Shown here in pieces: positions 49,156 to 51,459 of a stretch of DNA of 64,000 nt (its first letter is position 1; each line of letters opens with the position of its first letter). The notes beneath the pieces were generated by a model that had not been told where the DNA came from, made no database searches, and saw only the letters and a program-made list of their open reading frames with translations. This DNA comes from Tulasnella sp. 424 (lineage: Eukaryota > Basidiomycota > Agaricomycetes > Cantharellales > Tulasnellaceae): assembly GCA_019633425.1 (NCBI GenBank), contig WSUB01000076.1, positions 62,001-126,000 of the forward strand, in the 5' to 3' direction. A program made the translations under genes and the position numbers.

Positions 49156-51459
49156 CTAAACCCCGCTAGCCTTCATGGCAGCCTCTCTAACCATCTGCTC
49201 GACTTTCTCGGACCTCGGAACAAATCTACATTCGAACAGCAATGTTTGCCTAAAGGTGTAAGGGGCCACGCAAAATGACAATATCAGTCGCCGTCGGAAG
49301 GCATCAAAGCTAGGAACAACACCCACACGAAATGCCGGCAAAATTGAACCTGTCTTCATCCGTAGCTTTATACCCGTCCTCCATAGTGATCCCGTCTTTT
49401 GTTCGGATATCGAATGCCCAAAGCACAAAGACTGCAGTAGTCCAAGCAGCCTGAAACCCGAGATCCCGGCCAGGACAAATTCGAAGGCCGAACCCGAAGC
49501 CGAACTCCCATGGACTAAGAGCACTAGGATCCAAGGTAGGAGATCCGCCATTCTCGTTTCGCCTTAAGAACCTCTCTGGATTGAACTCTGTTGGGTTTTG
49601 ATAGAGTCGATGGTCCCTGCTGACCTGCCTGAAGAACAGGATTGCAACCACAACGCGTTTCGGTCAAACTTCCCTTCCGTAAGGTGAACAATTGTCCTAC
49701 TTACCACGCATTTCCGAACACTGCCGTGCCTTTCGGAATGAAATATCCTTGAAATTTGTCGTTGCGGATAGGTAAATGAGCTATGATTGGGGAGACTGGG
49801 GGATGCCACCTCAAGCTCTCCGTCAACGTCGCCTCAAGGTACGGGAGCTTGTCGAATCCCTTATCGTCAAGGGATGGGAACCGGTCTGGTCCAACTACGA
49901 CGTCAATTTCAGACTGGGCTATAGCTTGAATGCTCGGGTGGAGGGTCATGGCAAGTAAGAATGTTCGAATAAGGGACTCGGTCTAGATCATGCGAAGTGA
50001 GCCAACCGCCTACTGGAACCGTCTCTCAGCCACTCACTGTCTCGGCTCCGGCTTTATCGACAGAGTTGGAGTGCTCGTCAAGGATATAGTCGTCCTCTAT
50101 TTTATACGGGGCACGTACCTCGAAAGAATGAGAAGGACGTATTCTTGATTATCGTCTCGTCGCTTTGCAGCTCTTCCTCGCTTTTCGACCCTTGTTGGGG
50201 GGAATATACCTCTTGCAGCATATTACGGACAAACGACGCTGGCATACCTTCTCCGCGAGTATCAAGCTACGTTTAGGAAAGAATTAATGTTTGGCAAAGG
50301 CATTAGTCACTCCAAGCAAAGGTCGAATTCACCAACTGCTTCTTGACAGCCCCAAACATGTAGTCTCCCGCAAAACTGTATTGCTTTCTCCACTTTATGG
50401 CATCTCTCTTCCATTGGGCAAACGGGATGCATGGGGGATGTGCTTCACTAGGAGCATGGTGAGAGGGTTTGGTCATGTAACGTCGGGGCAGGGGCACCTG
50501 AAGGTGATGGCTCCGACAACGTGAAGAGGCGCACTCACTCCACGGCAGATAATCAACCCAATACCCTTCGACCGTGGTCGCAGTAATCTTTGCAACATCT
50601 AAATTCATTTGCACAAGCTCGTGGCCACCATCTTCGTCATCCCGAATCATTCCGTGTGAAATCTCCGTGATGAGTTCGGCGGTCATCCTGCACAAGAGAG
50701 TCGTCAGTGAGCCGGGTTCCTACACGTATAAAGAGTAACAATGGAAATATGATCGCGTACTTCTTGTTCTCCAGGAGGAAGTCTTGAGGCCGATTGAGAA
50801 GCGAGTTCAAGAAGGCTAGAGTCTTTCGGACAATAGCAGCTGAATACAGTAGTCTCGCTTTACAATCGGTGCCATTAAGGCACGATTCAGAAGTCGTCTA
50901 TGCTGCCTCCATATAGGCCCGTGTCCAACACGTGGTGTTACGATGTTGTTCCCTACGAACCCTCTAGTTAAGCAGTGATAGAGACAAGTCGGTCGACGGG
51001 CTCCTGTGCCTCGACGTAGACTCACCAATTAGCTCCCCAAGAAGAGCGGTAGTCTCCCGGTCGATATAGATGTTCCCCCTCTTTTCCGTTAGCTCCTTCA
51101 TAGTTTCATAGTCGTTCACAATCAAGTATGATTTTCCGGAGGCCACAGCCCAGGTCAACGGCCCATACTGCTCGAGCCATTTCATATAAGTGAGCGCAGC
51201 TTTGCCACGCGGCATGTCGAATGCATCTGTCAATAGCCGCTCGGTACCATTAGCATACCAAAGACGAAGAAATCCAACTGGGCTGATATCGGAACTTGTA
51301 CGTACTTCCAATAAAAGGTAACTGTCTTGGCCCAGGTGGATAGGGTAAGCCCTCCGGATTCCGCGTCTTCTCCCGACGCTTCCAAAGACTATGTTCACTG
51401 ATAACGAATAGAACCAATGTAGTCCAAGCAACAAATACTAGGCCGGAGAGAGTACTCAT
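49156..51459 (-). pseudogene. P450-13: group A cytochrome P450 with two frameshifts
   Basis: A close duplicate of P450-9. The first exon is sound: the ATG at 51459 gives MSTLSGLVFVAWTTLVLFVI and LPYPPGPRQLPFIGS. Exon 2 (DAFDMPRGKAALTY) is also open. In the third coding exon, after MAPIVKRDY, P450-9 has GACTATTCAGCT but this copy has GACTACTGTATTCAGCT, five extra bases (+ strand TACAGTA at 50845-50851). The frame shifts and stops soon after (YCIQLLLSERL-stop). A second lesion is a one-base deletion at about 50426-50436 in the KHIPP(W) exon. Downstream parts remain open: PFAQWKRDAIKWRKQY, a 3-base insertion giving YSPQQGSK, AGAET, PERFL, and the haem loop FGFGLRICPG (49469-49498). It stops at TAG 49156-49158. 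Probably inactivated recently. Confidence 0.85.

What the first reader, a model, noticed from the sequence alone, without database searches (positions are those of the whole stretch)
50840..50856. Pseudogene P450-13 carries what looks like a Tc1/mariner excision footprint
P450-9 and P450-10 read GAATAGTCKCGC (+ strand) at this place. P450-13 reads GAATACAGTAGTCTCGC. The difference is exactly five bases, turning one TA into TACAGTA (50845-50851). Tc1/mariner elements insert at TA, duplicate it, and on excision commonly leave two or three terminal bases between the two TAs; TACAGTA or TACTGTA is the classic Sleeping Beauty-type footprint. The insertion causes the frameshift that disables the gene. 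It suggests a CAG...CTG-ended element once sat inside this exon, although no such element is visible in the window.
Basis: partly seen in the sequence, partly recalled or inferred. Interest (0 to 1): 0.75.

Follow-up and report, generated by a model that had tools for sequence, protein, structure and literature searches.

The report
Likely transposon scar in P450 pseudogene
A broken fungal enzyme gene carries a five-base insertion that looks like the scar a "jumping gene" leaves when it cuts itself out, and jumping genes with matching ends are present elsewhere in the same genome; it is a tidy example of a known process rather than a new one.

Summary
P450 copy 13 (minus strand, about 49155-51459) reads GAATACAGTAGTC where three close copies and one distant copy read GAATAGTC: a derived 5-bp insertion turning TA into TACAGTA (50845-50851) and shifting the frame in the conserved KRDYS stretch. 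The genome is Tulasnella sp. 424. Two pogo-like families with CTG...CAG or CAG...CTG ends also occur, so the donor cannot be named with certainty. A random 5-bp insertion gives TA-CAG/CTG-TA about 3 times in 10,000. Excision is inferred, not seen: no allele or strain with the element at this site was available, and isolate sp. 425 seems to share the lesion. It is not the only lesion: a 1-bp exonic frameshift lies about 410 bp away, so which came first is unknown. Verdict: a probable Tc1/mariner-type excision scar, ordinary in kind.

The parts
50845..50851 (+). TACAGTA: ancestral TA turned into TA-CAG-TA by a 5-bp insertion; the putative excision scar (TACTGTA on the coding, minus strand)
49155..51459 (-). 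P450 copy 13, a pseudogene (matches the public model FRC04_010806 of Tulasnella sp. 424, which splices around the lesion); ends approximate
   Evidence: reading frames compared by eye with protein P0130
50761..50953 (-). exon of copy 13 holding WRQHRR (C-helix) and the KRDY motif with the scar; boundaries read by eye from paralogues and P0121
50433..50437 (-). 1-bp deletion in a G run: a second, independent exonic frameshift in copy 13
49324..49328 (-). 2-bp tandem CA gain, judged by eye to lie at the 5' splice junction of the last intron; effect uncertain
36144..36155 (+). uninterrupted site GAATAGTCTCGC in P450 copy 9
38771..38782 (+). uninterrupted site GAATAGTCGCGC in P450 copy 10
53572..53583 (+). 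uninterrupted site GAATAGTCTCGC in a more distant P450 copy (exon read by eye)

Best explanation
A TA-inserting DNA transposon of the IS630/Tc1/mariner group, with terminal triplets CAG and CTG, once inserted at the TA of the KRDYS codons in P450 copy 13 and duplicated that TA. The transposase later cut it out with staggered cuts that left three terminal bases at the donor site; end joining gave TA-CAG-TA, a net gain of 5 bp and a frameshift. The most likely donor is the Tc1-like DD34E family found in this genome (CAGTAGCGTAG...CTACGCTACTG); a pogo-like CTG...CAG or CAG...CTG family could leave the same letters. Shown: the insertion, its derived state, the matching elements, their TA target sites. 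Inferred: the past insertion and excision at this site.
For: Derived, non-tandem 5-bp gain that converts one TA into TA-CAG-TA. Rare under random insertion: 0.027% for CAG/CTG. The gap can be placed in three registers (TACAG, ACAGT, CAGTA); none of these words occurs again within 200 bp on either strand. The predicted donor type exists: three Tc1-like copies with TA-CAG...CTG-TA at 6 of 6 ends. The C43 copy is 2352 bp with an open transposase frame, D-91-D-34-E spacing, Pfam DDE_3 and HTH_Tnp_Tc3_2, and Sleeping Beauty SB100X as the only PDB match at E 0.001 or better; main blocks shared with the other two copies are 95.4-97.0% identical. Its TA target is shown by 3 of 3 empty paralogous sites read, of 8 reported. 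Sleeping Beauty excision leaves TACAGTA/TACTGTA (passages of PMC3432063 and PMC4378557).
Against: No allele, strain or paralogue with the element at this site. No second scar of this kind was found: no other event in the 69 indel rows, and 0 of 8 element-site paralogues read bore one. The Tc1-like family has only three two-ended copies, and in two of them the transposase gene is interrupted by another element, so the prior for its scars is low. The element may be younger than the lesion; nothing was dated. At least one other DDE_3 match (L006) has a 15-bp inverted pair around it with a different end, CCATCC, TA-flanked on one side only, so other kinds of ends may exist. One review passage gives the Sleeping Beauty footprint as TAG(T/A)CTA (PMC2874221), against the other two papers.
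Confidence: 0.77

Rival explanations
1. A non-transposon 5-bp insertion (error-prone end joining of a break or polymerase error) that happens to read TA-CAG-TA.
For: Copy 13 is a decaying pseudogene with other small indels; filler insertions of a few bases are common products of end joining (general knowledge); the scar was found once only.
Against: Needs a 0.79% (any TA-NNN-TA) or 0.027% (CAG/CTG) coincidence and then a second one, that the three TA-flanked families whose two ends could be read all end in CAG/CTG. No copy of the 5 bp within 200 bp.
Confidence: 0.16
2. Two-step slippage: AGT duplicated (ATAGTC to ATAGTAGTC), then two bases (CA) gained.
For: The result AGTAGT is a short repeat; other lesions of copy 13 are slippage-like (CA duplication, G-run deletion).
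Against: Needs two independent events within 5 bp, and no paralogue shows an intermediate (4 of 4 comparable copies have the plain site).
Confidence: 0.05
3. The donor was a pogo-like element or its MITE (CTGTACYGG...CCRGTACAG or CAGGATCACACGG...CTG), not the Tc1-like one. This is the same mechanism with another donor, so it overlaps the best explanation.
For: Both families sit between TAs and end in CTG/CAG; the CTG family has two MITEs of 406 and 408 bp, 92% identical. Passer, a fish pogo element, leaves 0-4 bp (passage of PMC9976928).
Against: The CTG family's long copy shows no single long transposase frame (introns not excluded), and only one CAGGATC element has exact ends. How these families excise is unknown.
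Confidence: 0.2
4. Sequencing or assembly error.
For: A single assembly was read; no reads were available.
Against: The insertion is not in a homopolymer, and the separate record of isolate sp. 425 has a protein model that skips the same exon part (P0134 against P0130); this is indirect.
Confidence: 0.02

Closest known systems
Sleeping Beauty excision footprint (Tc1 family, DD34E)
   Same: TA-CAG-TA or TA-CTG-TA at a former single TA; the genome's Tc1-like transposase has DD34E spacing and matches SB100X in sequence.
   Different: Seen here as a fossil in a fungus; excision not observed; the element is a different family with its own inverted repeats.
impala, Tc1-like element of Fusarium oxysporum (named; the rest recalled)
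   Same: Fungal Tc1-like element inserting at TA; I recall CAG-type ends and a 5-bp scar, but no call shows this.
   Different: No sequence comparison was made.
pogo/Fot1-type elements, including Passer
   Same: TA target and CTG/CAG ends in two families of this genome; Passer leaves 0-4 bp scars (passage of PMC9976928).
   Different: Transposase family DDE_1, not DDE_3; scar type of the Tulasnella families untested.

Membership tests
Tc1-type three-base excision scar | ancestral single TA at the site | tested here: met
   three close copies and one distant copy keep the single TA
Tc1-type three-base excision scar | derived site reads TA-NNN-TA, net gain 5 bp, adjoining bases unchanged | tested here: met
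Tc1-type three-base excision scar | NNN equals a terminal triplet of a TA-inserting element of the genome | tested here: met
   CAG/CTG ends in a Tc1-like and two pogo-like families
Tc1-type three-base excision scar | a strain or allele with the element at this site | not testable with these tools
   no related genome held; only proteins of sp. 425 seen
Tc1-like transposon (elements C43, C10, C143) | terminal inverted repeats flanked by TA | tested here: met
   6 of 6 ends (5 of them read in context)
Tc1-like transposon (elements C43, C10, C143) | TA duplicated on insertion, shown by an empty site | tested here: met
   C43 only: 3 of 3 empty paralogues read have one TA. C143: 2 read, they do not align cleanly. 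C10: not tested
Tc1-like transposon (elements C43, C10, C143) | DD34E transposase with two N-terminal HTH units | tested here: met
   C43 copy: D148, D240, E275; PF13358 and PF01498 above cut-off, a second HTH (PF13384) just below its cut-off
Tc1-like transposon (elements C43, C10, C143) | transposition activity | not testable with these tools
   needs a bench assay
pogo-like elements (C381 and MITEs; element nested in C143) | DDE_1 transposase, TA target, inverted repeats | tested here: met
   PF03184 matches lie inside C381:3204-5749 and inside the nested element C143:3448-7210; the nested element's empty site in the C43 copy keeps one TA. For MITE C11, 3 of 3 empty paralogues read have CA, not TA, at the site

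The most novel reading that the evidence does not exclude
The Tc1-like family is still mobile in this Tulasnella lineage and is a standing source of insertion-excision mutations that inactivate members of its expanded P450 cluster, leaving TA-CWG-TA scars as readable fossils of transposon visits.
Probability: 0.25. Interest if true: 0.45.

Novelty: new member of a known kind. Interest (0 to 1): 0.3.

Why it matters
If true, it shows that a past transposon visit can be recognised from five bases in a fungal pseudogene, with a likely donor family identified in the same genome. It also points to a Tc1-like element with an open transposase frame in a basidiomycete of a genus known (recalled) for orchid mycorrhiza, which could be tested for activity. 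The underlying mechanism is textbook.

Tried and rejected
Excess of TACWGTA as a sign of many scars: the window has 9 against 3.2 expected from shuffles, and 0 of 100 shuffles reached 9. The genome-wide density (3,302 in 46.8 Mb) predicts about 4.5 per window, and the two other sites with a paralogue to compare differ by substitutions, one of them also by a 4-bp gap from L087. The larger excess in the 'others' set is an artefact: 16 of its 25 loci were fetched because they contain TACTGTACYGG. Not pursued as evidence.

Local template for the 5 bp: none within 200 bp in the three possible registers. AGTAC, a rotation that cannot be the inserted word here, occurs once on the minus strand 88 bp upstream; CAGTA occurs about 264 bp away, at 50581 (read by eye). 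Neither was taken as a template.

Ends of other elements: for most of the other DDE_3 and DDE_1 loci no TA-flanked inverted repeat was found. One search, without the TA condition, showed a 15-bp inverted pair around the DDE_3 match of L006 (end CCATCC, TA on one side only) and 12-bp pairs in L073 and L074 that I took as chance. So 'CAG/CTG ends' holds for the three families whose two ends I could read, not for every TA-inserting element of the genome.

Second scar at sites of known elements: of 19 duplicated places that span a junction (8 for C43, 4 for MITE C11, 7 for C143) I read 8: 3 for C43 have a single TA, 3 for C11 read CA at the site, 2 for C143 do not align cleanly; none has a scar.

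Literature: searches. Judged by title in the lists shown, none is a Tulasnella or basidiomycete footprint study; some returned no papers; 17 and 26 listed 15 of 49 and 15 of 17. Two fungal papers in list 65 that hold the word footprint (PMC3538342, PMC10691877) were not opened. Passages were seen of six papers. The original Fot1 and impala papers were met only as references.

Full report
What was checked. The window is contig C423:62001-126000 of a 46.8-Mb, 448-contig assembly. The best protein match to P450 copy 9 (87% identical) is FRC04_010786 of Tulasnella sp. 424, on a contig of 191,446 bases, the length of C423. Copy 13 itself matches FRC04_010806 (P0130), on a contig of the same length. 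So I take the genome to be Tulasnella sp. 424, a basidiomycete of the order Cantharellales.

The insertion. TACAGTA lies at 50845-50851. Copies 9 and 10, the copy at C423:7738-8033 and a distant copy at 53572 keep a single TA. I aligned 17 protein models chosen from the 120 listed: 15 keep the Asp-Tyr pair at this place; the 2 that lack it are the copy-13 models of sp. 424 and sp. 425, both of which jump from GELI to AAIVRK, past the broken exon part. Two of the 15 (P0127, P0136) lack residues before the pair but keep the pair. The sp. 425 model equals the sp. 424 one wherever they align, except for one residue at an exon join, and a second gene pair is identical outside the stretch where the two models differ. 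The two isolates are therefore close and very probably share the lesion; this is inferred from proteins, not DNA.

Effect. On the coding strand the frame reads APIVKRDY, then CIQLLLSERL and a stop; the normal frame resumes as SAAIVRK after the insertion. This is an exon. A second exonic frameshift, a 1-bp deletion in a G run at about 50433-50437, turns KHIPPWVPFAQ into KHIPHASRLP in the old frame. A 2-bp CA gain lies, by eye, at the junction of the last exon and intron, effect uncertain. The order of these lesions is unknown, so the claim that the 5 bp disabled the gene cannot be upheld as the sole cause.

Is it more than chance? Five paralogue comparisons in the window gave 69 rows of indels of 30 bp or less, some events being counted in more than one comparison; 2 rows have the TA-NNN-TA form and both are this event. 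Simulated random 5-bp insertions give TA-NNN-TA in 0.79% and TA-CAG/CTG-TA in 0.027% of trials. The inserted letters have no copy within 200 bp in the three possible registers and are not a tandem duplication. The scar plus the next base, TACAGTAG, equals the first eight bases of the Tc1-like end with its TA, but that last G is ancestral, so the match beyond CAG-TA is a coincidence.

Donors. A search of the whole genome with Pfam DDE_3 gave 19 matches, counted exon by exon. Three of them (C43, C10, C143) belong to one Tc1-like family whose ends read TA-CAGTAGCGTAGAAAA and its reverse complement. The C43 copy is 2352 bp with an open frame of 355 codons (338 aa from the first Met), catalytic residues D148, D240 and E275 (34 residues between the last two), Pfam HTH_Tnp_Tc3_2 and DDE_3 above cut-off, and Sleeping Beauty SB100X as the only solved-structure match at E 0.001 or better. 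Main blocks shared with the other two copies are 95.4-97.0% identical. The copies are not alike throughout: about 710 bp of C43 (positions 1586-2296) have no match in C143, and C10 matched C43 only over positions 1-1572 in the part fetched. The transposase gene of C143 is interrupted by a pogo-like element and that of C10 by a short inverted-repeat element. In one search the pattern was allowed two mismatches; the 5 imperfect places are below the 12 of the control. The C43 copy interrupts a multi-copy sequence: 8 paralogous places span the junction; I read 3 and all have GGAGG-TA-TGTTTCG with one TA.

A search with DDE_1 gave 7 matches. One lies in a 2546-bp element at C381 with ends TA-CTGTACYGG...CCRGTACAG-TA; short elements with the same ends, of 408, 406 and 447 bp, occur at C11, C16 and C224, and a 386-bp relative (74%) at C139. 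Another match lies in a 3.76-kb element nested in the C143 Tc1-like copy, with ends TA-CAGGATCACACGG...CTG-TA; the C43 copy shows its empty site with one TA. All three families could leave TACAGTA. For most other DDE_3 and DDE_1 matches no TA-flanked ends could be found, and L006 hints at a different end, CCATCC, so other donors are not excluded.

Known scars. Passages of PMC3432063 and PMC4378557 give TACAGTA and TACTGTA as the typical or consensus Sleeping Beauty footprints. Passages of PMC7913693 give 0-3 bp for ZB and 2-4 bp for Tc1/mariner elements in general, and of PMC9976928 0-4 bp for Passer, a pogo element. A passage of PMC2874221 writes the Sleeping Beauty footprint as TAG(T/A)CTA, which conflicts with the first two.

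Verdict. The simplest account is a transposon insertion at this TA followed by cut-and-paste excision leaving three terminal bases. The likelihood ratio against a random insertion is large, but the prior is modest: three two-ended Tc1-like copies, no second scar found, no filled site. I put the scar reading at 0.77, with the Tc1-like family the most likely donor. It is a new instance of a well-known process.

Noticed in passing
L009:1986-2443 (contig C10, inside the Tc1-like copy): A roughly 450-bp inverted-repeat element (TAAGGCTCC...GGAGCCTTA) flanked, by eye, by the 8-bp repeat CCTGGCGG, hAT-like in its duplication.
   Followed up: no
L072 (contig C143:2222-7608): The Tc1-like ends and the nested pogo-like element's ends share the inner motif GATCACACGGTNCC although their transposases belong to different Pfam families.
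   Followed up: no
L070:3689-4400 (contig C43), approximate: About 710 bp of the C43 Tc1-like copy have no match in the C143 copy: either extra sequence in C43 or a loss in C143.
   Followed up: no
window 2167, 8884, 13088, 13498, 35314, 43224, 56608, 61347: TACWGTA occurs 9 times in the window, the scar included, against 3.2 expected from shuffles; the two with paralogues to compare are not insertions.
   Followed up: partly
contig C43:44340-97963: The Tc1-like copy at C43 sits in a sequence found at seven other places on that contig and one on C125, an unidentified repeated gene or sequence family.
   Followed up: no
window 49155-51459: The public gene model of copy 13 splices from the end of the preceding exon to the TTCAG just beyond the scar, so an automatic annotation hides the frameshift (splice point read by eye).
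   Followed up: yes
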